A DNA stretch of 64,000 nt, taken from Xylona heveae TC161 (lineage: Eukaryota > Ascomycota > Xylonomycetes > Xylonales > Xylonaceae). The translations under genes and the position numbers were made by a program. Every line of letters begins with the position of its first letter. The stretch's first letter is position 1. The notes under the pieces are model-generated. The model did no database searches, was not told where the DNA came from, and was given only the letters and a program-made list of their open reading frames with translations. The stretch covers positions 313,983 to 377,982 of the forward strand of contig NW_017264204.1 of NCBI RefSeq assembly GCF_001619985.1. Reading direction: 5' to 3'. Shown piece by piece: positions 4,083-59,575 of the stretch.

Positions 4083-6038
4083 TTAGGCAATCCAGAACCA
4101 AATCTTTTCGATGAAATTTCTGGGCACTTGCTCTGGCCACTTGCTGTCCTCTTCATCGAGGATGGCTTTGCCGCTGTAAATGTCGGCCTCTTCGGGCTTG
4201 ACGAACTTTGTGCGCTTGACAATCTTCCAGAAGGCGTAGAGGCCAAGGTAGATGGGGATGCCAATGTAGGCGACGAGGAAGTCGCTGACGTTCCAGTCGC
4301 CGTGGACGAAGACGGCCCAGCCGTTGAAGAGGATGATGACGAGGAAGTAGATGAGCGCGAACCAGGCGGTGTAGGGCTGCCATCTCGACTTGAAGACGAG
4401 AGTGTTGCGGTCGACGCCCTGGGCCTGGAGCGCCTTGTGGAAGCGCAGGTAGGCGATGAGGATCGAGATCCAGGTGAAGAGGTTGGCAATGGTGACGAGG
4501 TTCTGGAACCAGGAGAACACCTTGTTGGCACCGCTGGAGCAGCTCAAGTAGGTCAGGAGCGAGATGGACGCGGTGATTCCAACGCAGTAGTAGGGGACGC
4601 CACTGTATGTGTATGCGTTAGTACATGGTACACTGATGAGAGAGAGAGAGAGAGAGAGAAACTTACGTTCTGGAGCACTTAAGGAGGAAGCGAGGGGCCT
4701 GCTTGTCCTGAGCGAGCGCAAAGAGGTAGCGGCTGCCAGTGTAGAGGAAAGCATTGGCGGAAGATGAGGCCGAAGTGAGGATGACGGCGTTGATGATCGA
4801 AGGGAGAACCTTGATGCCGGAACGGTAGATGGCAATGACCCATGGGGAACGAGCAGCACCAGGAGCACCAGCGGCCTGAGCACCAAGAAGCTTTGCGTCG
4901 TTGTACGGCACCAAAACACCGATGGCGAGGGATCCCAGGACGTAGAAGAAGAGGATACGCCAGAAGACACGTCGGACGGCCTTGGGGATGTTCTTTCTTG
5001 GGTTCTCGGCCTCGCCGGCAGCGACGGCAACCATCTCGACACCACCATAACTGAAAGCCGCGTTGACCAAGGTGGAGAAGAGACCCAAGAAGCGGCCAAG
5101 ATCACCTTTGCTCTTGTATTCCTTCATCGCACCGGGGTGTTTCCAGTAACGGAAGCCCAGACGGTCGTGATTCGGGCCGCCACCGAGGTCGAGGACAAGA
5201 GCAAGGATCAAGAGTCCGACAATGGTGACGATCTTGATACTGGCGAATATGAATTCGGCCTCACCATAGATGGACACAGCAAAAATGTTGAGACAGAGGA
5301 CGACAACAATGATGATTGAGATCCATGCTGCAACATTGATATCGTCGTTCCAAAAGCCGATGACAATGGACGCGGCAGAGATTTCGGCGCAAAGAGTAAT
5401 AGCAGAATTGTACCAGTTCTGTCAAAAGAGCACACGTCAGAATATATTTTTTCTCCCGACTCAATGGATATTGATCGGATAACTTACGTTCCAGCCGACA
5501 GCGAAACCCATAGCATCGTCGACGTAACGGGAGCAGAACTGAGGGATAGCACCGGGAAGAGGAAGCCATGTTGCCATTTCTCCCAAGCATTGCATCTGCA
5601 AACACGATTAGAAATTGTTCGTCGTTCCCTAGCTGCTTCCTGAGCTGAGTCGGGGGTTAACAACATACCATGGCGAAAATGGCAAATCCGGTAAAGGTAT
5701 AACCTAGGAGCACCGAAAGAGGGCCAGCCGTGGTGAAGGCCGATCCAATACCTAAGAAGAGACCGGTTCCAATTGTACCACCCAAGGCAATGAATTGAAT
5801 ATGACGGGACTTGAGTCTGGGGATTGCGGTCAGCTTTCTGGATACTAGATTTGCCTTTTTTTGACTTCGCTGGTAATAATACTCACCCACGGGTAACATA
5901 GCCATAATGCTCAGCAGTTTGGATATCTCCGTAGATTTCGGCAGCTTCTCCAATGTTGCGATCCTTGCGATCCACTGGTGACTCGGCGCTCGCGACATAT
6001 TCAGGGCCTGAAACCTCATACAGCTGTTTTTCGGCCAT
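4083..6038 (-). CDS. Dip5/AgtA-type dicarboxylic amino-acid permease
   Basis: Exons (minus strand) 6038-5887, 5816-5669, 5595-5488, 5418-4667 and 4602-4083; introns of 64-73 nt with consensus ends; 559 residues, TAA at 4083. It is a 12-helix member of the AAT/APC superfamily that imports amino acids with protons across the plasma membrane. The substrate-pocket motif [13 protein letters not shown] follows a hydrophilic N-terminus, and [28 protein letters not shown] and [19 protein letters not shown] are typical of the Dip5 branch (glutamate/aspartate uptake; AgtA in Aspergillus). The C-terminal [20 protein letters not shown] is also characteristic of that branch. The last intron (4603-4666) contains a GA repeat. 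Length and motifs look complete, so it is probably functional. Exact substrate range is inferred from family resemblance. Confidence 0.88.
4639..4660 (+). repeat. (GA)n microsatellite inside a permease intron
   Basis: About 11 GA units on the plus strand (CT on the transcribed strand), lying wholly within the last intron (4603-4666) of the Dip5-like gene, where it makes up part of the polypyrimidine stretch. Confidence 0.85.
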
Positions 6039-6645
6039 CTTTGTAGCGGAAGGAAACGCGGTCCGCGAGCCTGAACAGGAGGGAAGTGAGGGCCTTGGGG
6101 ATCAGATCGGTTCAAGCTCGTGCAATCTCAGAGCACAAATAAGCTTGTCTGAAGCCCGTCTCCACAAATTATAGAAAGGTAGTCTTGAGTAGAGACGATT
6201 CATGGCGCCTTCGCGGGACTTCTTATATGTCTTGAAATTTGAGGATTCGAGGCTCAGCCCGTTCGAAGCTGAGCTGGGGTGCATGCTTTTGCCCTGCGAC
6301 GCCTCCATGGGTAGGTTCGCGATGGCTGCATCGCCCGCGGACCAACCCAAAGAAGTGAAGTCCCTTCTACGACGGTGTCGAGGCGTCAGCCCCCATGGCC
6401 GGCGTGACCGTGAGACGAGGCCGCCCGCAGGATTCTTTCGCGGTCCTGGTTCCAGTCCGATCCAATCAGCGGCCACGCAGGATCAAAGTGCGGCCACCGC
6501 TCGTCCCACGGATGGCAGGCGGAAATGCAAGGGCTGTGCTCTGGTTGGTCATTCTCAAAAGAAAAGGCAGCATTAGTTAAGGGTGGTATTTTTTTCTCCT
6601 GGTCGAACATTGGCAACACCTCCAGAGACAGAATGATTATCTGTC

Positions 6646-32652: not shown

Positions 32653-34379
32653 TCATGCCTCCTCCCTCTCTAGCTCAGCCTCCAACTCTAACGTTTCACG
32701 CAAAGCCGACATAAATAACTCTCCCTCAGACTCCTTAAGCGGTAAAAGAGGCTTACGAGGGGCTATACCATAGCCATGCATCTTATTCAAGGCGAACTCT
32801 ATCAAAGGATTTCCATTAGCTGTGTCAAGAAAAGCGTGGAAAGAAAGCCTTACTCATGCCTCTAATACCCGCCGGGACCGCTGCCACGTCGGAATTTGAA
32901 AGAATCGACTGGATTCTAGCTGCCTCTTTGACCTCCTTTTCAGTTGGAGAGGGATTGGTGCAAAATTTCCATAGCTTCATAGTCGCACGTGGAGCAAAAT
33001 TCGGTATGCCGCTCACGGTTCCGTGGCCTCCACACTGAGCCCAAGGCGTAAGATCGGCGATGAGGCCGTCAAGGAGGATAACTGGGAAAGGGCGACTGTT
33101 GTTCATGGCAGGGTCCTCTTGGATTGCCGCCTTTAGTCGAACAAGCTTTCCTACGCTTCCACCACACCTATGTTTATTGTTAGCAGTCAAAAAAACCATA
33201 CGTGGCCTGTCGATCCGTGAAAGGAACATACGTGAGTTTAACACCGCACAGATTTGGCGCTCTCTTCATTATTTCCGTAATCACCGCTGAAGACATGTCT
33301 TGCCCGCCAGCATTTGCAGGAAAGTTATACAGCAGCAAGGGAATCTGTTCATAGTCCTTAATGAGTGCGATATCACCTTTATAGGGCTGGGGAATTCCTT
33401 ACCGGCGAACCCTCGCAAATATCAATATAGTACTGAATTACCTGACCTTGGTCTGCATTGAGACTGGCTGCATAATAAGCCGGCAGAATTACCATTCCTG
33501 CATCTCTGTAGATATATGGTGTTAGCTAGGTGAATTTGCTTCCTTCAATCCATTTGCTTTCTCTTTCATTCCATTTCAACCACGTTCACTGAATGGTGTA
33601 GAACTTACGCTCCGGCTTCAGCTGCGGCCTTCGCTAGCCCAATTGTCTCTCTAGTGCTCGACCCTCCTACGCCGGCAACAATCGGTGTTGATGTGAGGCC
33701 AGCTTCATCAAGAGTTTTTCTGATGAACCGTATAAGAGTTATACGCTCATCATAGCTCTACTCAAGAAGCAAAATTAGTACTAACTTCGGAACCATCCAA
33801 ATATCCTCACTAACCAAATGTACAGCTTCTCCTAGTGAGCCAGCACAGACGGGCACTATAACGTGAGGTTAATATTGCATTTGGTTTTTCATCTTTGATA
33901 CATAATGCATACCAATGCCCTTGGTTGCTAGATCTAGATTATCGGAGAATGTTAGCCGTCAAATTCTACTCGAATTCCCTTGTTTTCCCTCCAAGCCTTT
34001 TTATCTATCTCTAATTTTAGGTTTCTTTTTTTTTTTTTTTTTTTTTCATGCTTTTTTTCCTTGGTGTAGCTTGTCAAAAACCTAGTCTCATGGAAAGCTT
34101 TCCAGAGCAAAATAGATTTCCCTTTTTTTTTTAAAATATATATATACATATATATATAATAGGAGGTATGATGGGAGAAACAAGTTAAAAAAATCAAGGG
34201 GACAAAAAGGTTGCGGCATGAAAAGGAGTATCGATAAAAATTCGAAATAAAGTAGATTACTCACTCAAAAGATGCTTCTTGTAACTGACAAAGTCTAGCT
34301 CTTGATTGTCATCGAAAAATGTGGGGAGAGGACCGTAAACACCAGGTCCGAGCGGACGTCTCTCACTTGGATTGGCCAT
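32653..34379 (-). CDS. DapA/DHDPS-family aldolase-lyase
   Basis: Eight exons: 34379-34265, 33933-33913, 33855-33815, 33757-33609, 33505-33403, 33344-33232, 33167-32854, 32798-32653; 333 residues. Introns are 55-103 nt except the first (331 nt). TIM-barrel Schiff-base lyase: GSLGEAVHL (the GxxGE pyruvate/keto-acid loop), YNFPANAGG (catalytic Tyr) and GVKLTCGG (Schiff-base Lys) are present. Fungi make lysine by the aminoadipate route, so a biosynthetic DapA role is unlikely; related enzymes cleave or condense keto acids, for example 4-hydroxy-2-oxoglutarate aldolase or sialic-acid lyase. The last acceptor was placed at 32799 because the nearer AG would leave a 34-nt intron, whereas this one restores the conserved GMKFALNKMHGYG. 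It opens the accessory block and points away from the permease. Exon 2 is only 21 nt. Confidence 0.85.
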
Positions 34380-34719
34380 GATGAATAGAAATGATGAACA
34401 AGACTATTTTGGAGAGAAATTGAACTTTGGGATTGAAATATCTTGATCTTCTTGATTGTTTATTTTAATCGTCTCTATGAAATTGTTGCCAGCGGATACG
34501 CAGATTAGACATTCAATCCGTCTATTAACTGTCGGGACTATCGGCGAACGAGCCGCCTGCCACCGAGGGCACCCAACGGCGGGCGGTGGCGGATAAGCGC
34601 TCTTGCTATGACTTTGTCGCGGTAACTCGCCGCATGGTCCGCCCCTCTAACCTCATGTTTCGGGTTCCTGTGTTTCGGGCGGGTCAGTCAGGAGTGTAAG
34701 GGCATCACCACTATCTATG

Positions 34720-34748
34720 AACGCTAAAACGACCGCTAATTTAGCGTT
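34720..34748. repeat. Inverted repeat, 9-bp arms
   Basis: AACGCTAAA (34720-34728) and TTTAGCGTT (34740-34748) with an 11-nt loop; perfect arms. Intergenic. Confidence 0.75.
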
Positions 34749-34850
34749 ATCTACCCCAAACTTCATATCGGTGGCCGCTTACCCAACGGCTCAGAAATCA
34801 ATGAATAACTTTATTGCCCCATGATTGTTCAAGTATATGGATTATGATCG

Positions 34851-34910
34851 CTTTACTTAATCTAAGTATCTATTACAGATTGAGAAAAGCAATACATAGA
34901 TTAAGTAAAG
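34851..34910. repeat. Perfect 14-bp inverted repeat, 60-bp hairpin-like element
   Basis: CTTTACTTAATCTA (34851-34864) and its exact reverse complement (34897-34910) enclose 32 bp. A 14-bp perfect match at this distance is unlikely by chance. Could be a tiny MITE-like relic, a structured RNA hairpin or a dimeric binding site. No target-site duplication was recognised. Confidence 0.8.
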
Positions 34911-35412
34911 AGGTCTCTGATGCAGAAGAATTAGTTAGGGTCTGTCAATTCGTTAAGATGGACAAAGCTTCAGCGTCTGTATAGTGAGACGTACTATTTA
35001 TAAGTGTCAATAAATCTGCATTATTTCATTGAATTCTTCTGGTACGAAATACGTATTTGCTCAAGCGGTCCGAAAGTGATAAGGGTTGAATCTAGGATGA
35101 ATTGGTTCAGGAGCTAATTTAGTTAGGTGCGGTATACATCTCTGTCACCGTCGGGATAGACTCCGTACTTTACCGCCAAGCAACCGCCGATGTTATCCGT
35201 CTCCATTCCCTCCAGATCTTATCGACAAATAGTCGGTTTGAGACCCGCTCCACCGATATGGGTGACGTTAATGATCAATTGAGTATTTGTGCCCTATGGG
35301 GGCAAGCTATAATTCCCGAGGTCCCAGAAATTTGACACCGGCTGCATTTCGTGCATTGGACGAACTGCAAGCTTGCAATTGCCTGTTAGGACCTGCAACA
35401 CATTGTGCTAAA

Positions 35413-38184
35413 ATGGCAGAAGTAGTAAGTCCAACAGCGGCTGAACGCACGTGGAGATTATTTCTAACTCAAAGTCAGCCTTACGACCAGAAGGAGAAGA
35501 CGTTGACGCAGAACGATGCCAATGAGATTTCTGTTGCATATGGTTCGATGGAGGAGAGCGATTCAAGAAAAGATGCTCCTTCAGAAAACGGCCTCCATCG
35601 TTCGCTCAAGGTACGGGCCTAGCACCCATGAATCTCCTTAACTAAACTAACATTTGAGTACAGCCCCGTCACTTGTCAGTAGATTATACGCATAATCAAT
35701 GTAATCTGAAATTTTGAATCTGACTCTGAGTTCTAGGCAGATGATTGCAATCGGAGGTGTCATTGTGAGTAGCTTTGGTTTCTCTTTTTCGACTTCAGAT
35801 ATCTAATATGCTATCAGGGAACGGGTCTCTTCTTGGGAACCGGTGGTGATCTTCAACATGGCGGCCCTGCTGGTTTACTGCTGGGTTATGCCGTAATGGC
35901 ATCTGTACTATTCTCGGTCATGGTAGGCTTGATGGATATCCCGACTATACTACCGCGACTAACATATTCGACCACTAAAAGGTTGCCTTGGGTGAGATGG
36001 TCTCCTGGTTTCCCATTCCAGGTGGCCAGTTCGCTTTGGCTGGCCGGTTTATGTCTCCGGAATTAGGTTTTGCTATGGGAGTTTTGTACTGGTACAAGTA
36101 AGTTTCGAGACCCTCATTTTATTATTTAAATGGCAATACTGACACTTTCAATAGCTATATCAGTATGTTAAGTTCAGCTCGCGTCTCAGTTCCGTTTCAC
36201 TAATCGTTGCAGTTGTCCTTCCTGCTGAAATATCTGCGGCCTCGGTCTTAATTACCTACTGGACCCCCGCTGGAGTTTCTGGCTCGACATGTACCACTGG
36301 CATATGTAACAATGCTATGTGGGTTGGACTCATGCTCATTGTGGTGGTACGTTCTTCTTGTTTTCCTCTAGGGCCTGATCCTGAGCTGACGTTTTAAAGT
36401 GGGCAATCAATCTTGCGGGAACTCGTGTGTTTGGCGAGATGGAATTCTGGTTTGCCTCTATCAAGGTAATATACAGGGCGAAGAATAATTGGGGAACAAC
36501 CATGGAGCTAAAGGGTACTCGCAGGTTATCACTATTATCGGTCTTATCATCGCGGGCATTGTTATCACAGCTGGCGGTGGACCAAACCATGAGAGTATTG
36601 GGTTCAGATACTGGAACGAGACTGGAGGATTTGTACAATATTCGGGAATAGGTAAGGATGCGTCCCTACGGTGATAACCAAACGCGACATGTATCTGACA
36701 AACAACTCTTCTTTAGCCGGTTCAAAGGGACGCTTCTTAGGCTTCTTCAGCAGTACGATTTTACCATCTCTTCATTCCTGTCCCACTTCTAATCCAATTT
36801 CCAGCGTTGGTTAATGCCGCCTTTGCTTTCATTGGCACCGAGATTACTGCTATAAGTGCCGCTGAGACTGCCAACGTAAGCATCCCGGTCACTAGAAAAG
36901 GCGATGTACTTACTTTTTCTACTTACAGCCGCGACTAAATGTCCCACGTGCAATCAAGAGTGTTTGGATCAGACTTATGATATGTAGGTTATTTCTAAGT
37001 GTCCGTCGTTGAGAGGAAATTTGACTAATGAGGGTCTACGTTATAGTCTACGTTTTGAGTGTCTTCGTGGTAAGTCATGACTTGCCCGCTTTGCCTTATA
37101 CACGACTTGAGAGCTGACTTCAATAAATCTTTAGGTTGGCTTGCTGGTCTCGCCTTCTGATCCTTCTCTTGATCTCGGAAAAGCTGCTGCCAAAAGTCCT
37201 TTTGTCATTGCAATCAAGGTCAGTGTTTATATCTCTGTTACCTCTGAATGCAACCTCCGTACTTATTCTTCACAGAATGCCGGAATTCCAGTGCTGCCCT
37301 CCATCATCAATGCCGCTCTTCTCACCAGTGCATGGTCCGCTGGCTGCGCCGATATGTTTGTCTCGTCGCGCACCCTCTATGGTCTCGCTTGCCGTGGCCA
37401 TGGCCCTAAATTCCTTCTGAAGACCAGAAAGTCGGATGGCCTTCCCTGGGTTTGCGTGATGATTTCTATGGCCTTTTCATTACTCTCATTCATGGCGGCA
37501 GATCAGAAGGGCAAGGCTGGCACAGTTTTCGGCTACTGTGAGTCCAATATCCCTTGAGTCGGTCTCTAAATGTCAAACTGACCCTTATGTAATAGTCTCA
37601 AACATGACGGCCATTTGTGGTATGATCTCATGGGCCTGCATCTTGGCGACTAGCATCCGTTTTCAGAAGGCTTTGAAGTTTCACGGCGTTGACCGCAAGA
37701 CTCTTCCTTACACGGCTCCCTTCCAGCCGTACCTCAGTTACTGTAAGCTTCGAAATTAGGCGACTTCAAAGATCTATTTGGTAGACTAACGGCTTGTTTA
37801 ATCCAGATGCAATGGCATTTTGCGTGATAGTCATAATATTTGGTGGCTTCAGTTCTTTCAGTGAGTTATGACCAATGAGTTTTTTTTGTCTTCAGAGCAG
37901 CTGTTCCTGACGAATCACAGTTCATTCCTTTGACACCTCCTCATTTATCACCACTTACTTCCCAATTCCCTTCTTTATCGTTCTATTAGTTGGTTACAAA
38001 TTGTACCACAAGACGAAGGTTATCAAGATTGAGGACTTTGACCTTGTTACTGGTTCTTCTACCGCCATGATCGAAGAGGTACGTTGATTCGAAATTCCTT
38101 ATTGACTGGCAGGTTATGCTGATTGAATACAATGAACAGTCTAAGCCCAAATCCTTTTGGAAGAAGATTTCTGAAAACGTGTAA
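35413..38184 (+). CDS. Amino-acid permease (AAT family), 19 exons
   Basis: Exons: 35413-35610, 35664-35674, 35737-35764, 35818-35922, 35982-36097, 36155-36162, 36213-36346, 36400-36465, 36525-36651, 36717-36752, 36805-36875, 36929-36983, 37047-37069, 37135-37218, 37276-37537, 37596-37742, 37807-37860, 37921-38078, 38140-38184. All 18 introns are 50-65 nt with GT...AG ends, and the joined frame has no stop: 575 residues. It is a 12-helix APC transporter: [19 protein letters not shown], then [56 protein letters not shown] and the C-terminal [19 protein letters not shown]. Related to general amino-acid and proline/GABA permeases; substrate unknown. Exons of 8 and 11 nt are unusual but required by the conserved protein (WYNYIIVLPAE and PRHLQM). 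By context it may import the ureide or amino-acid substrate of the adjacent hydrolase. Confidence 0.88.
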
Positions 38185-39154
38185 AGATTATTGCGGTAAT
38201 ATGTGAGACGGTCACATTTTAGAAACGGTGCTACTTTCAGAATCTTAGAAAGCCTGATTCATGTATTCTTTAGATTTGTTTTTTTATCCTTATCATCCTG
38301 AGAAGTCGAATAAAGGATACCTTGTCTGATTTTTGCAAGATTTGCGGCTCGCATCAAGAATTAAATTCAGATTTAACTGATATGGATATGTGCGTTCAAT
38401 CAAAGCTTTGGCGAAGAGAACAACGAAGCCAGCTGTGCATAAACTCAAACTTAGAATGCCATAACGTTCAATGGTGATGTTCGGCGACAAAATAACCTCG
38501 TGCTCGGCGTTCATCTTGATACTTTCCTTTTCTACAACCAACAATGACCAAATGCTTATCAGGCAGTATCTCGGCCGAATTGTTACAAAAGTTGTGATAT
38601 AATAAAATGCCTAGCGACTTGTGGGGTTAGCCTGTTCCTGAGCTCGTGGCAACCCGACACAAAAGCCGCTAATGATTACGCTAGAAATTGAACCCCATTG
38701 CCCAGGGCTCCTTATCATGGACCTTCTCCTCGCCTGCTCCAAATCCCAGAACCCTACTGCGGAGGCCCCGTAACGACCTTTTCTGATCCGGAGGAAATGC
38801 AAGTCAATCTGCATCCTTGTGGCTTGCGTAGCTTGATTGATCACCCGCTCTTATTTTGACCGTCGCCGTTCGTAGGAGTGATTTCGGTCCTTTGGATTGA
38901 ACCTCGGTTATTCCTGTGGCGAGTGATAACGATACGGTGGGTAAACTAGTGACAAGCGGCATCCAGCCGAAACATCCCTTCCTCGCCCGAAGTACTTCGG
39001 CATAGGCACCGTGTTTTCCGATCTTATCCTAAGATCCAATTACAATACAGGTAGTTGGAACTTCAATTACGACCCTTGCCCATAATGCTGTCAAGAAATC
39101 CCATCGCGGCTCTTGTTACGCAAATTGCGTGTTATACCAAAGCGTATAGTCTTC
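38185..39154. other. Intergenic region between permease and hydantoinase-like gene
   Basis: 970 bp with short frames only (83 and 77 codons on the minus strand, no family features). Contains the 3' end of the permease transcript and the promoter of the next gene. Confidence 0.5.
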
Positions 39155-41506
<2,352 letters not shown>

Positions 41507-42069
41507 GCCTTTTCGAATTGCGGGACATTCTTGGTCATCTATCTGTTTACGAATATTTCTATCAATGGGACCATGCCACTGAAGATGTATGTAGCCATGT
41601 AATTATCATATAGAGTATCATGATACACAGCTGTACATAGGAAGAACCTCACTACTACGTAAAGAAACCCCGAGTTTTACCGAGTGTTCGTACGTATGTA
41701 GTTAAGCCCTGCTCTACATATCCAGTAAAAGAAGCTGTAATAATCGCTTATCAAACCGAACTCTGTAGAACTGGATGTTTGGCCCCTCGGCTAGAACCTT
41801 TACGGTAAAAGTACACAGCTGCTATCAAATAAAGTTGCCCCGTCGTGGCTGATAGTAATGATAACGCATTTGGGGCCATTGAGTTGCTCCTTTCCCCCAG
41901 GAGTCTCAACAATTCAGGACAAGGGGAAAAGCAGCAACAAATAAAGCTAAAACTGTACTGCATCTACCGGCCCGTTTTCAGCGTGTATCACAACAGATGA
42001 CGCCGATTGCTCTGCACCTCTGTGATTGTTTCATATTCCTCGCCCGGAGCTTGAGGTTGACAAGCTTAG
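41507..42069. other. Intergenic region before the Zn2Cys6 regulator
   Basis: 563 bp, short frames only; contains the regulator promoter. An in-frame TAG directly precedes the chosen ATG at 42070. Confidence 0.5.
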
Positions 42070-44891
42070 ATGACTATGATGGAGAAGCGTGCAGAATCTC
42101 CACAGTAAGCAGAATGTATCGCAGCTATGCAAAGCGGCAACAATTGCTCAATGCTGAACTAGTTCCGACATTGACGACCAGCCTACGAAAATACGTCGTA
42201 TTTCTCGTGCTTGTCTGCAGGTATGTTGAGTATTTCCTATCATCCCGGAAAACAACAGCGCAAGTTCGACTAAATCTCCGCACAGTGTCGAGCAAGAAAG
42301 CAGCGCTGTCAGCCATTGTCCAGCACGGCAACTCTGCAAGCGCCATGCAAACGATGCCAACACCATGCTATTACTTGCTCCTTTGAAACAGACCAAATAA
42401 GTCCACCAGATGTCGCGCCCAGTCCATCAAAGATGGCACAGCTTGTCGTCGACCTGCAGCAGCGGTATGTCCCTGCATGTCCAATTAACGATTAAGTATT
42501 GTAATTCTGATTTCGACCCACCTTTTCAGGCTTAATCGACATGAAGCTCGAATTCTAGAACTAGAAAAGCTGCCTCAAGGAGGGAAAGTCAGGCAAACGG
42601 ACGAGGACACGCCCAGTCATGCTAGGGGTGCTATCAGCAAGTAAGACTTTCCAATTTTCGCCTTTCCAGTCGTACAACTCCGCTGATATCAGTGCAGTGC
42701 ACAATCAACTTCCCATCAGACTCCAAGGGAGCTCCCCCTTGAGCGTGAAGATGGCCCGTCTCCGCAGGTATTGACTTGCGAAACTCCAGCTTCGCATACT
42801 TCGACCTTTAGCATGGATGGGATTGGCCTTGGACCGCCGATTGCGACTTTACGGTCCTTGGGCGCTCTTTCCAAAGACGAAGGAAGATTGAGTTCTCATT
42901 CACCAGAATTAAAGTCAAAAGGAACCCCGAATGTTCTCAACCGTTATACGGCCTGTGATCCGGTCGCACGAGGTGTGCTTTCCGTGCATGACGCTCAGCG
43001 GGCGATCCACATGTACGTCAATTGCTCCCTGAGAGCCTTTCTCAATGACGAAGACTGATTTAGTTCTCCAGATTCTTCGAGCATTGCCATCCACTCGCAC
43101 CGGTTCTAAATGAGAGACTTCGCCATTCATGGCTCGACTTGAGGTTCTCTAGTCCGACCCTTTTTCTGGCGATATGTTCTATTGGCGCCCGTTTCTGGGA
43201 CACGGGCCACCAGCTGTAAGTATCATAGCATTTCAGTCCGAAGAATTCTTATCCTGAACATGGAACAACAGTCCAAGGCCCATGCAAGCAGTCCACCCAA
43301 GATTCTCTGACCTGACGGCGCTTCTCGACATGGCTGTCTCGCGACTGTTGCTGCGCCCAACACCCGCCGATGTCACACTCGATTCCATTCGGGTATTGCT
43401 TCTCTACGCACAATGGATGCCGTGCAGTCGTGATGATGAAGACAACGGTGCTTCTAAGGTGCCACTCGATGCACACTACCAACCGAAGAGTCGATACAAC
43501 GAGATAAGCGCTTGGGCCGTGCTGGGACTGGCTGTACGATATGCCCTCTTCCTTGGTCTGGACCGGGCAGCTATCGCGCCTTTTGAAGGACCCATCAAGT
43601 CTGTTTCCGAGGAAGACATCTGCCGCTTGAGAGTTTGGTATAACCTGCTCACATGTGACTTCAACCTCATGTTGACATCCGGCCTTCCCACCTCCCTTGA
43701 TCCGGCACCGTCAGCAAAAGTTGCTCAGCGCTTCAGCTCACATAGGGCGGCACAACAGCCGGGCGATCTTCGCGTATCGGCTCTTGTGGGGCTGGTGGCA
43801 ATTGTGCATCGTGGGATGCGCATATGCAATGATGCTTCAGGCCGCCAGCTGGATACGCTCTGTTTGAGAAAGATCAATGTAGAGTTGGATGAGTGGGAGC
43901 GGTAAGTCTAATCTAGCAGCGTTAACAAACTATTGTGATGACTGACTCTGCGATCTGTCTCTAGTTCATGGTACATTCGACTCCGTAAGCCTTCCAATGA
44001 TCACATATTTGTTGTAACTTGTTATCTGATTGGTTTATAGGGCATACGGAATCACAACATAATCAACTACCCTTCACTTCGGTCAGAGTAAGAATCGGTT
44101 CACACAGTGCTCATTACAGGAAGAAATGCTAACAAGGGCTGATCAGTGGTACCGCCTTGCTCTGAACAGTGCTGCGGTTGGTCCAGTATTGTCCTCAATG
44201 GACCGAACAGCACCTCAACCGCTGCAGGTCTGGCTTCTGCAGTCACTGGGAACCTGTCTTACCGCAGCCTCTCAAATGCTTCTCTCACTGTCTTCCTACG
44301 GCGCAGAGTATATCTGGAAATTGGACTCTCAGAATATGTCAACGTTCCCAGATGGGCCTTTCGAAATTGATAGCGCAGCTGTCAAGCGCCTCTATTATGC
44401 AGTGGATTCAACGTGGATCTCTCACACCTTTGCAGTGACTTTCCTAGTGTTGTGCTATGTCAGAGGGGCAATCGATGGTAAGGCTTCCCATCTCCAAACA
44501 TTTTCAATATATACTAAGTCATTATTCTTTATCTGAAGATGATCTTCGCATTCGCATACTAAATCCTAACGCCTCTTCCAATCCAAGCGTGCTCCCTCCT
44601 CATTCCGGATCCACCATTGCTCGGCTTCTTCGACTTGCGCTAGATGTCTTTGATGGTATCTGCCAAACGACATCATTTCATCCTGCACGCGATTTTCAAG
44701 CCATTGTCCATGATGCCACTTCTCTAGTCTTGGTTCCAGGACAAGAAGACGTGCAGGATGGTCAAGAGATGGATGGCTCGGCTTTACAATCGCTTTTGGA
44801 CATGATGAATGACTCTGGATTCGATTGGCCTGGTAATTTACTCAATTTATCGACAGACTTCCCCCCTGAATGGGAGGTGGATGGATGCTGA
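42070..44891 (+). CDS. Zn2Cys6 transcription factor with fungal-specific middle domain, 11 exons
   Basis: Exons: 42070-42104, 42163-42220, 42286-42464, 42530-42640, 42698-43012, 43072-43215, 43272-43901, 43965-43984, 44041-44087, 44147-44477, 44539-44891; introns 56-65 nt; 740 residues. Joining exons 1-3 creates the binuclear cluster: SRACLQCRARKQRC followed by PCKRCQHHAITC, six Cys that bind two zinc ions and read CGG half-sites. Exon 4 (RLNRHEARILELEKL) continues as a coiled-coil dimerisation helix. The fungal_trans region follows: FFEHCHPLAPVLNERL, then AWAVLGLAVRYALFLGLDR. The cluster is split by an intron between its second and first half, a common arrangement. Next to a hydantoinase, a permease and an aldolase it is the obvious pathway-specific activator; that role is inferred from position. 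Exon 8 is 20 nt. Confidence 0.88.
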
Positions 44892-45103
44892 ATATTTAGA
44901 TTTTGTTGTCCAACAGCGGTTTTGATGTGATTATTGGATTTTTAATTTCGCGCATGCTTTAATGATACCCCTTTTTATTTTAAACATGTCCGCATTTCTA
45001 TAATTTTGCAGAGCGAGCTTTTCTAAAGTTGTTGATTCTATACACATTATAAGCATTCCGAATAATGAATTTTCTCAATATAATGAGATTTCCAGAAAAC
45101 CAC

Positions 45104-45535
45104 TTACGTTTCTTCATCTGCGAGTTCAAACACCACATTCTGAGCTCCCTTCCAGAGCACCAATTCGCCGAGAGCGCGCAAATTCTCTGCGCCCTCTGTA
45201 ATGGTCAAAAAGTGATTTGCCGCCAATGGACCCATTTTGCTAGCAAACGCAACACCTCCGTAGCAAAAGAGGAACTCCGTCTCGGAGATTCCGCCGGGAT
45301 ATAGCAGAATCTGCCCTGCACCTGGATGCGCAGTGTGATTCTCAAACGGCACGCCAAAGTCCGTCTCGCCCAACGGCACCCACATGCCCTCACCACTCCA
45401 GCGAACGTGGATGAGCTGCTGCCGGTAAGGTAGCAGCTTGCGGAACATGGCCACTGTTTTTGGAGCCGCCGATTCGAAGCTCGCTAGAAACTGGTAAGGA
45501 CCGGCGGTGATCAACACGGTATTCGACTCTGACAT
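45104..45535 (-). CDS. DUF3830 family protein (cyclophilin-like fold), intronless
   Basis: Single exon, 143 residues, ATG at 45535, TAA at 45104-45106. LIHVRWSGEGMWVPLG, then ILLYPGGISETEFLFCYGG and FASKMGPLAANHFLTI are the signature of DUF3830, a small beta-barrel family known mainly from bacteria, where (from memory) members often lie beside hydantoinase-like hydrolases, hydantoin/Asp-Glu racemases and transporters. No catalytic activity is established. The gene ends the intron-rich block and points toward the regulator, and its lack of introns contrasts with it. The stop codon lies inside GTAAGT, a perfect splice donor, so a longer spliced form is conceivable, but the protein already ends where the family usually does. 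Confidence 0.8.
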   Translation of the reverse strand: MSESNTVLITAGPYQFLASFESAAPKTVAMFRKLLPYRQQLIHVRWSGEGMWVPLGETDFGVPFENHTAHPGAGQILLYPGGISETEFLFCYGGVAFASKMGPLAANHFLTITEGAENLRALGELVLWKGAQNVVFELADEET

Positions 45536-45680: not shown

Positions 45681-46575
45681 NNNNNNNNNNNNNNNNNNNN
45701 NNNNNNNNNNNNNNNNNNNNNNNNNNNNNNNNNNNNNNNNNNNNNNNNNNNNNNNNNNNNNNNNNNNNNNNNNNNNNNNNNNNNNNNNNNNNNNNNNNNN
45801 NNNNNNNNNNNNNNNNNNNNNNNNNNNNNNNNNNNNNNNNNNNNNNNNNNNNNNNNNNNNNNNNNNNNNNNNNNNNNNNNNNNNNNNNNNNNNNNNNNNN
45901 NNNNNNNNNNNNNNNNNNNNNNNNNNNNNNNNNNNNNNNNNNNNNNNNNNNNNNNNNNNNNNNNNNNNNNNNNNNNNNNNNNNNNNNNNNNNNNNNNNNN
46001 NNNNNNNNNNNNNNNNNNNNNNNNNNNNNNNNNNNNNNNNNNNNNNNNNNNNNNNNNNNNNNNNNNNNNNNNNNNNNNNNNNNNNNNNNNNNNNNNNNNN
46101 NNNNNNNNNNNNNNNNNNNNNNNNNNNNNNNNNNNNNNNNNNNNNNNNNNNNNNNNNNNNNNNNNNNNNNNNNNNNNNNNNNNNNNNNNNNNNNNNNNNN
46201 NNNNNNNNNNNNNNNNNNNNNNNNNNNNNNNNNNNNNNNNNNNNNNNNNNNNNNNNNNNNNNNNNNNNNNNNNNNNNNNNNNNNNNNNNNNNNNNNNNNN
46301 NNNNNNNNNNNNNNNNNNNNNNNNNNNNNNNNNNNNNNNNNNNNNNNNNNNNNNNNNNNNNNNNNNNNNNNNNNNNNNNNNNNNNNNNNNNNNNNNNNNN
46401 NNNNNNNNNNNNNNNNNNNNNNNNNNNNNNNNNNNNNNNNNNNNNNNNNNNNNNNNNNNNNNNNNNNNNNNNNNNNNNNNNNNNNNNNNNNNNNNNNNNN
46501 NNNNNNNNNNNNNNNNNNNNNNNNNNNNNNNNNNNNNNNNNNNNNNNNNNNNNNNNNNNNNNNNNNNNNNNNNNN
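45681..46575. other. Assembly gap of 895 N
   Basis: Unknown bases. The left flank ends in six G, the right begins with seven C, so the break may have arisen in GC homopolymer. The gap probably hides the 5' end of the TauD-like gene and the DUF3830 promoter. Open frames that run across N are meaningless. Confidence 1.
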
Positions 46576-50955: not shown

Positions 50956-54349
<3,394 letters not shown>

Positions 54350-57300
54350 TTATGCAAGCGCCTGCGCCTTGACCATGGCAGCGTAAACTCCATTGAGGGC
54401 AATAAGCTCTGCATGCTTTCCTTGCTCAACAACTCGGCCATGGTCGAAAACAAAGATCCGGTCGGCATTCTGAATCGAAGCAAGCCGATGTGCCACCACA
54501 ATAGTGGTCCGTTCTGATGCTGCCATGGCAATGGCCTTTTGCATCTCCGCCTCAGAGTGTGAATCTAGCGAGGTTAGACGAGATAGCTTGCGGAAATAGA
54601 CGCCGGGAATTTGCCAACGTACCTAGAGCAGACGTAGCTTCATCTAGCAATAAGATGTCAGGGTCTCGAACGAGTGCACGAGCAATCGCGATTCGCTGTT
54701 TCTGCCCGCCAGACAGCTGCGATCCGTTCAGACCACACTCGCTTTTTCAAAGTCAGCATTTCCATGGACACGAGCATACAAAACAAGGCTATCACTCACG
54801 TATTGTACCCATCTGGCAGTCCCATGACAAAGTCATGAACGCCACACTTTTTGCATGTATCCTCAATCTCCTCCCTTGTAGCCCTTTGACCTGGCCGCAA
54901 TCCGAGACTAATATTGAAGAAAACACTTCCAGTGAAGAGATCCGGCTCTTGTGGTACAAGGGCCAACCTCTTCCGATGATCACTAACTGATTTAGAACGA
55001 ATATCCTCCCCATCAACGAAGATTGACCCTGAAGTTGGATCGAAGAACCTTTCCAAGAGCGAAACAGCTGATGATTTACCAGCTCCAGAAGGACCAACAA
55101 GCGCCACAAACTCACCAGGAGAAAGCCTGAGGTCAACATCTTTAACAGCATATTTACCGCCCCTGTTAGCATACGCCAGAGAGACGTGACGGAACTCCAC
55201 TGCTCCGCGACGCGGCGACATCTGATCAGCTGACATGCTGGCAGATCGACCACTACGAACCGAGACGGCCTTTTCATTGTCCGTTTTGTCAAAAGCTCCA
55301 CCAAGATGTCCATTGTCAATGGAAGGTTTTTGATCGTGCAACGCAAAAACACTTAGTGCTGCAGATCGAGCCCGTGTCAGTTCTGGGGCAAGACTGAAGA
55401 GTTGGCCCGCTCCTTGAGCAGAAAATAACAGAGCAGGCAGAACTATGAAGAAATCCAAAGTGCTATAATCTCCATTTCTGACGTTCCGCGAACCCCACCA
55501 GTAGGCGAGCCTGTTACACCTTTCAGCAACAGTGCATACATCAAATGATTAACGGTGACAACTTACGAGTAAACAAAATACCTAGGCACAGAGACTTAGC
55601 ATTCTAATCTTCAAGCTGGATATTCGTGGCTTACGTTATAGCAAGTGCGAAGGCCAATAAGAGATTTCCAAAGACAATAAATCTAAGACTCTTCTTGTAA
55701 GGTCCCTCAATTGCCTTCTTATAAAGGCGCAATATGTCCTTCTCACGGCCAAGGGCCTGCACAGCTCGCATTCCTTGACACGCTTCAGAAGCCAGGGCGG
55801 CCGCGTCATTGTATGCCGTCTCATGCAGCTCCTCAAACTTTGCAAGTATGCGCAGCCTCATGAAGCCGGATACAATCATGATCGGGACAGCTGCAAGGAG
55901 GACGATGGCGATCTTCCAGGCAACAATGTGCGCAAGAATAATGCCACCAACAATTGAGGTCGTTACCGAAAACACTGTCCCAATAATAACCCCAGAGAGA
56001 CCACTAAGATGACCGGAATCCATATTGAGCGTTGACATGAGAGAGTGTGACGAATGTCCGGGTTCTGAGAACCAAGACATATCCTGGCGTAAGATTGCTC
56101 TCAGAGAAAGATCACGGGTACGACCAACGAGATTCTCCGACACCACGCCAAAGGATGAGCTGCCAACTGAATGCGCAACCAAGGCGATGATGGACAAGAC
56201 AAAGAACATCAGACAATAAAAATCCGCATGATCTTTCACGACGATTGGGTTGGCGTTGTCGTTTAGGGTTTGAACCAGATGTCCAAAAACGAGGGCTAGA
56301 AAGTATTAGAGGCAGCAAGGTGAACGGAGCAGGGGTTTAATAGTTACCTTCTCCGATAATCATGCCGCCACCAACGATAGAGGCTTCAGGAATATGTTAG
56401 TGATGAGGAAAATACACTCATGAAGAGATTAAATTTGGCGAGAATTGACAGATATAAGCCAGCACGTACCACAAATACCAACTCCAATGAAGAAAGCTTC
56501 AGGTTTGCTGAGCTTGAGACACCTCTTGATGATTCCAAAAGCACTCAATGTGTTCTCCTTTTTGGAAGGCGCTTGAGCCACCGGCACTGCATGTTCGTGA
56601 ACAGCCTTTTCAGAAGGAAGCTCTTCTGGGAGCGCTTGAATAAGACCGTCGTCTTCTGGTATGCTGTCAAATTCGACAAGACTTTGAGCATTTACAAGCT
56701 CCTTATAAGAACTATCCCTGGACATCAATTCTTGGTGAGTGCCCTGTTCGACAAGCCTTCCATGATGCATGATCATGATGGTATCAGCGTCTTTGACTGT
56801 TGCAAGCCGGTGTGTAATCATAATGGTAGTTCGGCCGGAGACATGGGCCGCTCTATTCAGCGCATCGAGAACCAATTTTTCGCTAGTAGCATCCAAGGCA
56901 CTAGTCGGTTCGTCCAAGATGAGAAGAGAAGGTTGTCCGATGAGAGCACGAGCAAGGCACAATCTCTGTTTTTGTCCACCAGAAAGCTTCGTGCCACCAG
57001 CCGCACCGACCCGGGTCTGGAAACCTTCCGGTAAATCGTTAATAAATGCATAGGCATTTGCATCGCGTGCTGCCTGGTGACATCGTTCTAAGACCTCTTG
57101 TTCCGACAGACCGTGATCATCTCCTAGGCCTTGAGAGATGTTATCTAAGATGGTCCCAGAAAACACGACAGATTCCTGGTCAACCAGTGCCTGAAGCAAA
57201 CAACGAATCAGCCGAGCATATATGATGGAAGGACAATGGGCGCACATCACTCACAATTTGAGCTCTCAGACTTGGGATATGGAAATTTCGAAGGTCTTCT

Positions 57301-58960
57301 CCACCAATAGTAATTCTCCCAGAGCAGGGGTCATAGAATCGCAATAGAAGCGATGCCACCGTAGACTTTCCGCTTCCGGAAGTCCCAACGATACCAGTCA
57401 TGGCTCCGGGTTTGAAGTTTAAGTTTATCGTCTCCAGAACGCGGGTGGCAGGACGAGCGGGATAAACAAATGTTACATGATCAAAGCTGATTTGTCCTTT
57501 GAATGTACCTGCGTCGGCGCGGATGCCGTCATTGGAGTATACATTGATGTGAGGTTCTGGATGGTCCAAAATCGCAAATGCTTTTGCACCCGAGGAAGCA
57601 GCCAGAGCAAAGGTCTGTAAGAATGGACCAAACGAGCCAATAACAAACGCGGCATCTAGCATCAGGAACACGACAGCGTAGACAGTTCCGGCTCCACCCT
57701 TGGAACTGTTAGAGGCCACCATCTGTGAACCTTCCCAGAAAGCTAGCCCGTTGGCTGCATATCTGTAAGATCAAGAATGTTAGCAAGGCAAATGAACATC
57801 TGCTCTGATCGCACTTACGCTACAAAATAGACACTACCAAGCATCAGAGCTCCACACATTGCTTTTCTGATGCCCGCGCGGATAGACAGACTCAACATAT
57901 CCACATGCTTATTGGAGAGAGTGTCAGATGCATTAAATGCCTGGACTACTTGGACTGCGCGTATTGCCCCCTCGGCGAGAGATGCAGCCTTCTCAGTAAA
58001 AGATGAGGCCTTCTTGGAATATGTCGACACTAGAGTCGTGCCTCCGCAGACAATGATAGCCATAGATGGGATCACTGCGGCAAAGAGAATGCCGGCAAGT
58101 TTGGCATTGAGTATCAGGCCAACAACAAATGCGGCGACAAAATAGCTCGCGGACTGGATGAAAAGTCCTACTTTCTCTGAAGTGCCCAACTGAATTGTCT
58201 GTGTATCTGCCGTGAGGCGATTCGCAATCTGGCTATAGTTAGTATACCCTACATTTAACAAATACATCTCTTTGAGGCGCAATATCATCACAGTCGGAGG
58301 ATCATTGCTTGACTTTCACTTCATTGGTGACGCAAGCCCGACGCTTGTGTGACAGATGGTGGCTCTGGGTCGCACAATCATTTACCCCACTTACATCTGG
58401 ACATTCAACTTCAAAATAAGCCATTTCCATACCCATTGCTCTCTCAACTAATTGCTCACGGATTCGACGAGAAACTCTCTCTCCAACCAGGCCCCAGCAG
58501 ACGGCCCAGCCCCATGTTACCACAAAGTATGCCACCGCTGATCGCCTATCAGTGTCTGGATTGAATCTACAGCATGCCACAGGAAACACGCACCAACGCC
58601 AAGAAGCTGAGAGATGTGTACCCGCAACTCCTCCTCAGAGGGTGGAAAGGAATTAATGAGCTTTCCGAAAATAACTCCAATAATAGGGAGAGGTATTCCG
58701 CCTGCAATTGCTAATAATACGCCGGCGAGAAGTATGAACCGCGACTGCCAGTCAGTCAAGGGCCGGAAAAGCGCGAAATAAGATGTTTTGAAGGGGTTGA
58801 GGCCCAGTAGCTGACGAAAGAGGTTCTTGGGAAGCGATGTGGATTCGACGTGCCATCGATGTGGTGCAGCAGTGCTGAGGGATGCAATATCCACATCGTC
58901 GCGCCATTGATGCCGCTCTTGGGCAGCAAGCTCTCTGCTTGGTGCCTGCCTTCTTGACAT
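54350..58960 (-). CDS. Full-length ABCB-type ABC transporter of the siderophore cluster
   Basis: Eleven exons: 58960-58594, 58537-58395, 58228-57819, 57762-57255, 57190-56470, 56383-56348, 56295-55635, 55582-55568, 55510-54800, 54741-54623, 54564-54350; 1,301 residues. Architecture is (TMD-NBD)x2. NBD1: Walker A GTSGSGKS (about 431), LSGGQKQR (about 540), Walker [16 protein letters not shown]2: Walker [10 protein letters not shown] (about 1,094), LSGGQKQR (about 1,203), Walker [13 protein letters not shown]. Both sites have the usual Glu after Walker B, so both could hydrolyse ATP. Second intron is 166 nt, the others 52-86; exon 8 is 15 nt. Homologues beside sidA and siderophore NRPS genes are thought to move siderophores, their precursors or breakdown products; direction unproven. 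Divergent from the NRPS. Confidence 0.93.
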
Positions 58961-59575
58961 GATCCTCAAAGATATGAGGTAGAATCCAACAAAAGGATGT
59001 CAAGAATTGAAGGGCAAAGAGCAAATATTGGGCCGGCACTGGCAGGAGGACAGGAACATTTTCCTGGACGAGAGTTTCGACATGACGAATTTCTCGCGAG
59101 GCAGCTTCCTTGTGTTTCCCCACTTGTCTCGGCGTTGGAGCAGAGGAGCCCAAGGGATCGACGTTGGTCCACAGCCATGTTAGCTTCCGGGCTTGTTCCT
59201 CTGCATTCTCGGCCCGCCGGTTGGCAAAGGTACTCAAAGTGCGCCACTGTCGTATAATGCCAGGAGAAACAACCAGCCTAAAAATTTTTTCTGTCCCCTC
59301 CTCTGCACGCCATTAGACAAATTTCCGAGGCATGCTTGCTAGAGGCCTTGAAGGATCTTCGCTAGACAAATCCACACAAGGGATTGCACCTTAGCTCCTG
59401 TTTGGAGCTGGTGCATGACGACAAGGGTTGAAGAGCTCGTAAGCTCGAGCTTCTACCGTACCGGACAGGAATCCACAGTGGGTAATAGACATTCAAGCCT
59501 GAGACAGCGGTATGTTTAGCTCGCCAATGTGGACGGGGCAGAGGCCATCAGACCCACCATGATGGGATGTGGGGC

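What the first reader, a model, noticed from the sequence alone, without database searches (positions are those of the whole stretch)
32653..45535. Candidate undescribed catabolic cluster: hydantoinase/dihydropyrimidinase + permease + DapA-type lyase + Zn2Cys6 factor + DUF3830
Seen: five adjacent genes whose products are a membrane importer, a cyclic-amide hydrolase with all zinc ligands, a Schiff-base keto-acid lyase, a pathway-type regulator and a small protein of a family mostly known from bacteria. Known: dihydropyrimidinase-fold enzymes open dihydropyrimidine or hydantoin rings; DapA-fold lyases act on keto acids; Zn2Cys6 genes often sit within the clusters they control. Inferred: uptake and stepwise breakdown of a hydantoin, dihydropyrimidine or other cyclic ureide as a nitrogen source, with DUF3830 as an accessory or isomerase-like partner. 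I do not know this gene combination from a characterised fungal pathway. An expected N-carbamoyl amidohydrolase is missing and may lie elsewhere.
Basis: partly seen in the sequence, partly recalled or inferred. Interest (0 to 1): 0.78.

Follow-up and report, generated by a model that had tools for sequence, protein, structure and literature searches.

The report
Fungal cyclic-amide breakdown gene cluster
Five neighbouring, apparently intact fungal genes look like a kit for taking up and breaking down a small ring-shaped nitrogen compound, and one of them is a bacterial-type protein of unknown job that in some bacteria sits beside the same kind of ring-opening enzyme.

Summary
Five adjacent genes (32653-45535) encode a DapA-fold lyase, an amino-acid permease, a dihydropyrimidinase/hydantoinase, a Zn2Cys6 regulator and a DUF3830 protein, all with stop-free models and GT-AG introns. 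The hydrolase looks like an ordinary fungal dihydropyrimidinase: it groups with yeast PYD2 and keeps its metal ligands. The transporter is an amino-acid permease, not a ureide carrier; the lyase resembles keto-acid aldolases, not lysine-pathway DapA. The unusual part is DUF3830: intronless, 62-69% identical to 28 aligned bacterial proteins, probably acquired from Proteobacteria. Beside bacterial DUF3830 genes HydA is directly adjacent in 10 of 80 genome loci and within 5 kb in at least 13 of the 23 most similar plasmid records (many closely related). In 5 of 16 fetched plasmid loci and 1 of 80 genome loci, HydA and DUF3830 also share the locus with a DapA-family lyase, DAO-type flavoenzyme and transporter genes. 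So the grouping has a bacterial parallel, supporting a cyclic-amide catabolic cluster but no particular substrate. Against it: six HydA genes among those most like the fungal one have no DUF3830 nearby, the fungal lyase is of another lineage, no DAO or N-carbamoylase was found in the window, and no fungal genome could be searched. DUF3830's predicted fold is cyclophilin-like.

The parts
32653..34379 (-). DHDPS/DapA-superfamily lyase, 8 exons, 340 aa; nearest solved relatives 3qfe (putative DHDPS-family protein), YagE keto-deoxy-acid aldolase and 4-hydroxy-2-oxoglutarate aldolase (3s5n/3s5o)
35413..38184 (+). Amino-acid permease (closest to the 2A0310 model), 19 exons, 575 aa; a later in-frame ATG is another possible start
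39155..41506 (+). Dihydropyrimidinase/D-hydantoinase, 14 exons, 534 aa, with HxH, Lys, His, His, Asp metal ligands; groups with yeast PYD2
42070..44891 (+). Zn2Cys6 transcription factor, 11 exons, 749 aa
45104..45535 (-). DUF3830 protein, intronless, 143 aa, predicted cyclophilin-like fold, 62-69% identical to the 28 bacterial relatives aligned in A2
41507..42069 (.). Regulator promoter with 7 GATA-factor-like sites (HGATAR, both strands) against a shuffle mean of 1.9
34380..35412 (.). Shared divergent promoter region of lyase and permease (GATA-like sites 5 against 4.3 in shuffles: unremarkable)

Best explanation
A fungal catabolic gene cluster for an amino-acid-like compound that carries, or is converted to, a cyclic amide or ureide ring (hydantoin/dihydropyrimidine type). 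Proposed order, all inferred: the permease imports the compound; the dihydropyrimidinase-type enzyme opens the ring; an N-carbamoylase and an amine oxidase or transaminase encoded elsewhere yield a 2-oxo acid; the DapA-fold lyase splits this to pyruvate and an aldehyde through a lysine Schiff base. The Zn2Cys6 factor is the pathway regulator, possibly itself under GATA-type nitrogen control. DUF3830, probably acquired from Proteobacteria, acts on a reactive or stereochemically wrong intermediate around the ring-opening step. Shown: gene families, intact frames, metal ligands, PYD2 kinship, the recurring bacterial HydA-DUF3830 linkage. Not shown: substrate, co-regulation, any activity.
For: Intact five-gene block. 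Hydrolase over the D-hydantoinase/dihydropyrimidinase cut-off (427.5 against 393.25 bits) and grouped with L. kluyveri PYD2 at 100/99. In bacteria HydA directly adjoins DUF3830 in 10 of 80 genome loci (9 same strand, 1 convergent; HydA anywhere in the fetched stretch in 12 of 80) and lies within 5 kb in at least 13 of the 23 plasmid records most like the fungal DUF3830 (8 examined without HydA, 2 not examined). HydA-type genes are sparse: 44 places in 20 genomes of about 116 Mb together, so direct adjacency by chance should be well under 1% per genome (my arithmetic). GntR, amino-acid ABC transporter, DapA-family lyase, DAO-type fusion, HydA and DUF3830 occur together in Azospirillum L001, Agrobacterium L006, Aureimonas L008 and Rhizobium L015, with variants in Paraburkholderia L009 and Arsenicitalea L049. 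GATA-like sites in the cluster promoters: 18 against 9.8 in shuffles; 19 of 2000 shuffles reach 18.
Against: The counts are not independent: four of the ten adjacent genome loci are Rhodopila relatives, and six of the ten HydA proteins form one clade; the 13 plasmid records include five Azospirillum and five Paraburkholderia. HydA is near DUF3830 in a minority of genome loci (12 of 80; 7 of the 50 with both flanks complete); DUF3830 also sits with M20-type hydrolases (23 of 80), and 31 of 80 loci showed none of my 15 amide-related labels. DapA was near DUF3830 in 6 of 80 loci, and only 1 of those had HydA. Six HydA genes among the most similar to the fungal hydrolase have no DUF3830 within about 7 kb (0 of 6). 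The fungal lyase is only 23-31% identical to the four operon lyases compared. No DAO, M20 hydrolase or racemase match in the window. No fungal comparison was possible. GATA enrichment rests mainly on one promoter.
Confidence: 0.48

Rival explanations
1. The five genes are neighbours without a common pathway: a housekeeping dihydropyrimidinase, a generic amino-acid permease, an aldolase, a regulator and a horizontally acquired DUF3830 gene.
For: Hydrolase is of the PYD2 type; lyase and permease belong to large families; no conserved fungal neighbourhood could be shown; lyase unlike the four operon lyases compared; HydA genes most like the fungal one lack a DUF3830 neighbour in 0 of 6 loci having one.
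Against: HydA-DUF3830 linkage recurs in bacteria and reappears here; a DapA-family lyase, an amino-acid transporter and a regulator are partners in several of those loci.
Confidence: 0.3
2. A dihydropyrimidine salvage/detoxification locus: the hydrolase opens dihydrouracil or dihydrothymine as PYD2 does; the other genes only widen uptake or dispose of products.
For: PYD2 kinship and best solved match 2fty, E 5e-129. [quoted passage not shown]
Against: No beta-alanine synthase or dihydropyrimidine dehydrogenase came up in the window, but I ran no query for the dehydrogenase, and and the 10 proteins do not cover every gene; an aldolase and DUF3830 have no place in that pathway.
Confidence: 0.17
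3. A biosynthetic cluster in which the DUF3830 protein makes or rearranges a cyclic imine, as its Pictet-Spenglerase fold relatives do.
For: Foldseek places KslB and McbB among the best matches to the model.
Against: Sequence identity to those is 14-18%; no synthetase or tailoring gene among the five; the annotated bacterial DUF3830 contexts look mostly catabolic.
Confidence: 0.05

Closest known systems
Lachancea kluyveri dihydropyrimidinase PYD2 (2fty)
   Same: Metal ligands, overall sequence (45.6% over 522 columns with the partial yeast sequence), sister in the tree
   Different: Longer loop after the HxH motif ([14 protein letters not shown]), SPPPPP in place of SPPIRP; gene sits near DUF3830 and a lyase
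Bacterial GntR / amino-acid ABC / DapA-family / DAO / HydA / DUF3830 locus (Azospirillum L001, Agrobacterium L006, Aureimonas L008, Rhizobium L015)
   Same: HydA type, DUF3830 (68, 57 and 58% identical for L001, L006, L008 in A1), a DHDPS-family lyase, amino-acid-type transporter, a regulator
   Different: Fungal lyase of another lineage, no DAO match in the window, single permease instead of ABC transporter, Zn2Cys6 instead of GntR, introns in four of five genes
DUF3830 (PF12903), solved relative 3kop
   Same: Family score 99.5 bits against cut-off 26; cyclophilin-like fold, Foldseek E 1.8e-7; profile match E 7.5e-7
   Different: 3kop only about 20% identical; function unknown in both
YagE / HOGA-type keto-acid aldolases
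   Same: DHDPS fold; Schiff-base Lys in GVKLT aligned with YagE GIKDT; YNFPA motif shared with YagE
   Different: About 29% identical to YagE over 71% of the query; substrate unknown

Membership tests
Dihydropyrimidinase/D-hydantoinase | Score over the curated cut-off (TIGR02033, 393.25) | tested here: met
   427.5 bits
Dihydropyrimidinase/D-hydantoinase | Metal ligands HxH, carboxylatable Lys, His, His, Asp (ligand identities recalled) | tested here: met
   Aligned with 2fty and 10 bacterial HydA
Dihydropyrimidinase/D-hydantoinase | Hydrolysis of dihydrouracil or hydantoin | not testable with these tools
   Needs an enzyme assay
PRK13404 dihydropyrimidinase subfamily (NF009941) | Score over 647 bits | tested here: not met
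   548.7 bits
Allantoinase (TIGR03178) | Score over 357.85 bits | tested here: not met
   199.3 bits
Hydantoin-5-propionate amidohydrolase ErtD (NF058539) | Score over 650 bits | tested here: not met
   178.2 bits
4-hydroxy-tetrahydrodipicolinate synthase DapA (TIGR00674) | Score over 206.15 bits | tested here: not met
   92 bits
DHDPS superfamily (PF00701) | Score over cut-off and Schiff-base lysine | tested here: met
   104.9 bits; Lys in GVKLT aligned with YagE
DUF3830 (PF12903) | Score over cut-off 26 | tested here: met
   99.5 bits
Fungal Zn2Cys6 regulator | Six-cysteine cluster plus Fungal_trans domain | tested here: met
   Spacing CX2CX6CX12CX2CX6C; Fungal_trans 24.7 over 23; Zn_clus 20.5 (under 21) full length, 24.8 for the N-terminal part
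Bacterial DapA-DAO-HydA-DUF3830 locus | HydA and DUF3830 together | tested here: met
   39155-41506 and 45104-45535, with the regulator gene between them
Bacterial DapA-DAO-HydA-DUF3830 locus | Lyase of the same lineage | tested here: not met
   23-31% identity to four such lyases (one nearly full-length, three partial alignments); but L009-type and L001/L006-type lyases are also only 27-31% alike where compared through L102
Bacterial DapA-DAO-HydA-DUF3830 locus | DAO-type flavoenzyme in the cluster | tested here: not met
   No match in the window by tblastn with three DAO-type queries; the 895-base gap cannot be read
Conserved fungal pathway cluster | Same gene set in other fungi | not testable with these tools
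   No fungal collection; no whole genome held for the window

The most novel reading that the evidence does not exclude
DUF3830 is an undescribed small enzyme of cyclic-amide/ureide (or cyclic-imine) catabolism, with a cyclophilin-like fold shared with Pictet-Spenglerases. A fungus acquired it from Proteobacteria and built around its own dihydropyrimidinase and an aldolase the same kind of pathway that bacteria encode in the DapA-DAO-HydA-DUF3830 loci.
Probability: 0.25. Interest if true: 0.72.

Novelty: new variant of a known kind. Interest (0 to 1): 0.5.

Why it matters
DUF3830 has no function in its Pfam name, and none of the held papers contains the term. Its repeated place beside cyclic-amide hydrolases in bacteria, and now in a fungal block with the same type of hydrolase, gives a concrete, testable hypothesis for its role. 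It would also be a case of a bacterial accessory gene joining a fungal nitrogen-catabolic cluster.

Tried and rejected
Viral contigs with A1: no relatives. DUF3830 against solved structures by single sequence: none up to E 1; by profile: 3kop at 7.5e-7, the other three at E 0.96-1.2.

Shared regulator motif: CGG-CCG, CCG-CGG and CGG-CGG pairs with spacers 0-21 were scanned (66 combinations); only direct CGG-N12-CGG occurred in at least 3 of the 4 promoters, which is no evidence after so many trials. Shared k-mers: none of 12 or 14 bases, two 11-mers shared by two promoters each. GATA sites were the only other motif tested.

Hydroxyproline pathway (DAO plus DHDPS-type deaminase, recalled) was considered for the bacterial loci: no proline racemase appeared among the 10 further proteins scanned from such and other DUF3830 loci (instead phosphotriesterase-family and M20 proteins in some), so it was not adopted. 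Diketopiperazine hydrolysis was considered: passages of PMC3852281 leave the responsible enzymes unclear. PMC5333837 (passages) and PMC5545021 (one passage) only list such proteins.

Where the fungal DUF3830 branches among bacteria: unresolved (138 columns for 99 rows, one row archaeal). The rows were chosen for similarity to the query, so direction and age of transfer are not tested.

Literature searches for a fungal counterpart or for the bacterial locus turned up none in their listings, which cover an open-access library only. Besides listings I saw passages of PMC3852281, PMC5169069, PMC6478659, PMC9585004, PMC7024544, PMC5333837 and PMC5545021; in PMC10169691 none of my five terms occurred.

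Full report
What is there. The window is fungal by its gene structures (short GT-AG introns, Zn2Cys6 regulator); the species is not known to me. Spliced models were built by hand and translate without internal stops: a DHDPS-superfamily lyase (-), an amino-acid permease (+), a dihydropyrimidinase-type hydrolase (+), a Zn2Cys6 factor (+) and an intronless DUF3830 gene (-). Pfam confirms four over cut-off and the fifth more weakly. DUF3830 is on the same gap-free stretch as the regulator gene, 212 bases from its end, so it is not an assembly join at that side; an 895-base N run starts 145 bases upstream of it.

The hydrolase. It scores 427.5 bits against TIGR02033 (cut-off 393.25) and 548.7 against NF009941 (cut-off 647, so not a member by that test); allantoinase and ErtD models are far below cut-off. 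Its best solved relative is Lachancea kluyveri dihydropyrimidinase, E 5e-129. In a tree of 38 sequences it pairs with that enzyme (100/99); both are on long branches and the yeast sequence is partial and compositionally odd, so the join deserves caution. Bacterial rows labelled HydA are 32-49% identical to it, the other amidohydrolase rows of that tree 27-30%. The metal ligands are present in the alignment. It is best seen as the fungal dihydropyrimidinase type, not a new enzyme class.

The lyase. It is over the DHDPS-superfamily cut-off but far below the true DapA model (92 against 206 bits). Nearest solved relatives are 3qfe, YagE and 4-hydroxy-2-oxoglutarate aldolase. The Schiff-base lysine aligns, and the YNFPA motif resembles YagE. 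A 2-oxo-acid aldolase is the likeliest kind; its substrate is unknown.

The permease and regulator. The permease belongs with amino-acid permeases (AA_permease 417 bits; the 2A0310 model gives 505 of the 579 bits needed). That favours an amino-acid-like substrate. The promoters of the block hold 18 GATA-like sites against a shuffle mean of 9.8 (19 of 2000 shuffles reach 18). The regulator promoter has 7 against 1.9 (1 of 1000 shuffles reaches it) and the 145 readable bases before DUF3830 have 2 against 0.35 (47 of 1000), while the lyase/permease and hydrolase promoters are unremarkable. Other stretches that I took for non-coding hold 35 sites in 15.4 kb (2.3 per kb against 6.6). This is weak evidence for nitrogen control.

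DUF3830. The fungal protein is 62-69% identical to the 28 bacterial proteins of alignment A2. In a 99-row tree the fungal sequence joins an unresolved base among proteobacterial rows on a fairly long branch. With no intron and such identity, transfer from bacteria is likely, though no other eukaryote sequence was available. GC3 is 0.62 against 0.43-0.52 for the four neighbours, but a ribosomal protein gene in the window has 0.75, so composition does not decide. The AlphaFold2 model (mean pLDDT 88) matches 3kop (E 1.8e-7), the Pictet-Spenglerase KslB (1.4e-6), TM1367 (8.5e-6), McbB (1.2e-4) and then cyclophilins. That shows a shared fold, not a shared reaction.

Bacterial neighbourhoods, genomes. 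Among the 80 genome loci (50 with both 10-kb flanks complete), HydA was labelled in 12 (7 of the 50); in 10 it directly adjoins DUF3830 (L020, L021, L025, L028, L032, L034, L039, L074, L082 on the same strand, L049 convergent), while in L042 and L052 it lies some 5-6 kb away. These are not independent: four are Rhodopila and six of the HydA proteins form one clade. M20-type hydrolases were labelled in 23, allantoinase-like or ring-opening amidohydrolases in 7, DHO-like in 4, formamidase in 3, and any of 15 labels (amidases and Asp/Glu racemases included) in 49; 31 had none. Labels are best BLAST hits to 39 reference proteins, so distant families are missed. DapA was found in 6 of 80 (L031, L043, L048, L049, L063, L072), each with a DAO-type fusion, and HydA in only 1 of these 6. 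As a density check, 20 of the 80 genomes, chosen by me and including seven with adjacent HydA, hold 44 HydA-type places and 21 DUF3830 places.

Bacterial neighbourhoods, plasmids. DUF3830 matched 38 plasmid records. Of the 23 most similar (55-68% identity), 13 have HydA within 5 kb (H1-H4, H7, H11, H15, H16, H19-H23; coordinates, annotation), 8 that were fetched showed none, and H10 and H17 were not examined. Five of the 13 are Azospirillum and five Paraburkholderia. I fetched 16 of the 38 (L001-L016): 7 have DapA, and 5 of those (L001, L006, L008, L009, L015) have HydA too. An Acidisoma plasmid has HydA, amino-acid ABC transporter, DAO, iron-sulphur subunits and a DHDPS-family gene with no DUF3830 in the stretch. 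Against my reading, six HydA genes among the best of 163 plasmid records that match the fungal hydrolase (H39, H40, H42, H43, H46, H54) have no DUF3830 within about 7 kb (0 of 6, tblastn), and only one of the six has DapA. So the hydrolases most like the fungal one are not the DUF3830-linked ones.

Lyase lineages. The fungal lyase is 23-31% identical to four bacterial lyases from such loci. The bacterial loci themselves use at least two lineages: the Acidisoma lyase is 57% identical to that of L009 but only 27-31% to those of L001 and L006. A lyase from another lineage therefore weighs less against a common kind of pathway than it first seems, but it does exclude simple transfer of these operons.

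Reading. The bacterial data make it unlikely, though not excluded, that the HydA-DUF3830 combination in the fungus is accidental; a DHDPS-family lyase with an amino-acid transporter is a companion in some of those loci. They do not show that the fungus imported an operon: its hydrolase groups with yeast PYD2, and no DAO, M20 hydrolase or racemase matched in the window. The likeliest account is a fungal catabolic cluster for an amino-acid-like compound with a cyclic amide ring, into which a bacterial accessory gene was recruited. Chance neighbourhood remains a serious rival.

Literature. No held paper contains 'DUF3830'. Listings for a fungal hydantoin or dihydropyrimidinase cluster showed none; most subscription papers and all preprints are outside the library. 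[quoted passage not shown]

Noticed in passing
45681-46575: 895-base run of N flanked by short G and C runs, just upstream of the DUF3830 gene; could hide a promoter or small gene.
   Followed up: no
51043-59312: L-ornithine/L-lysine monooxygenase gene (Lys_Orn_oxgnase in 51693-52802) near frames that match an ABC ATPase: possibly siderophore-related.
   Followed up: partly
4083-6127: A second amino-acid permease gene on the minus strand (AA_permease in the part 4663-5421 scanned).
   Followed up: partly
L014, L016, L031, L043, L048, L063, L072: Bacterial loci with DapA-family lyase, DAO-type fusion and DUF3830 but no HydA label; phosphotriesterase-family proteins in L048 and L072 (also L049, with HydA) and M20 proteins in L043 and L048.
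   Followed up: partly
L010, L062, L064, L073, L078, L079, L093: DUF3830 in loci with both allantoinase-like and ring-opening-amidohydrolase-like genes (labels).
   Followed up: no
L102:7001-15386: Acidisoma plasmid (source given as lichen) with HydA, amino-acid ABC, iron-sulphur subunits, DAO and DHDPS-family genes in one block without DUF3830.
   Followed up: partly
45101-45110: The DUF3830 stop codon overlaps a GTAAGT sequence that could be a splice donor; a short further exon cannot be excluded, though bacterial relatives end at about the same place.
   Followed up: no
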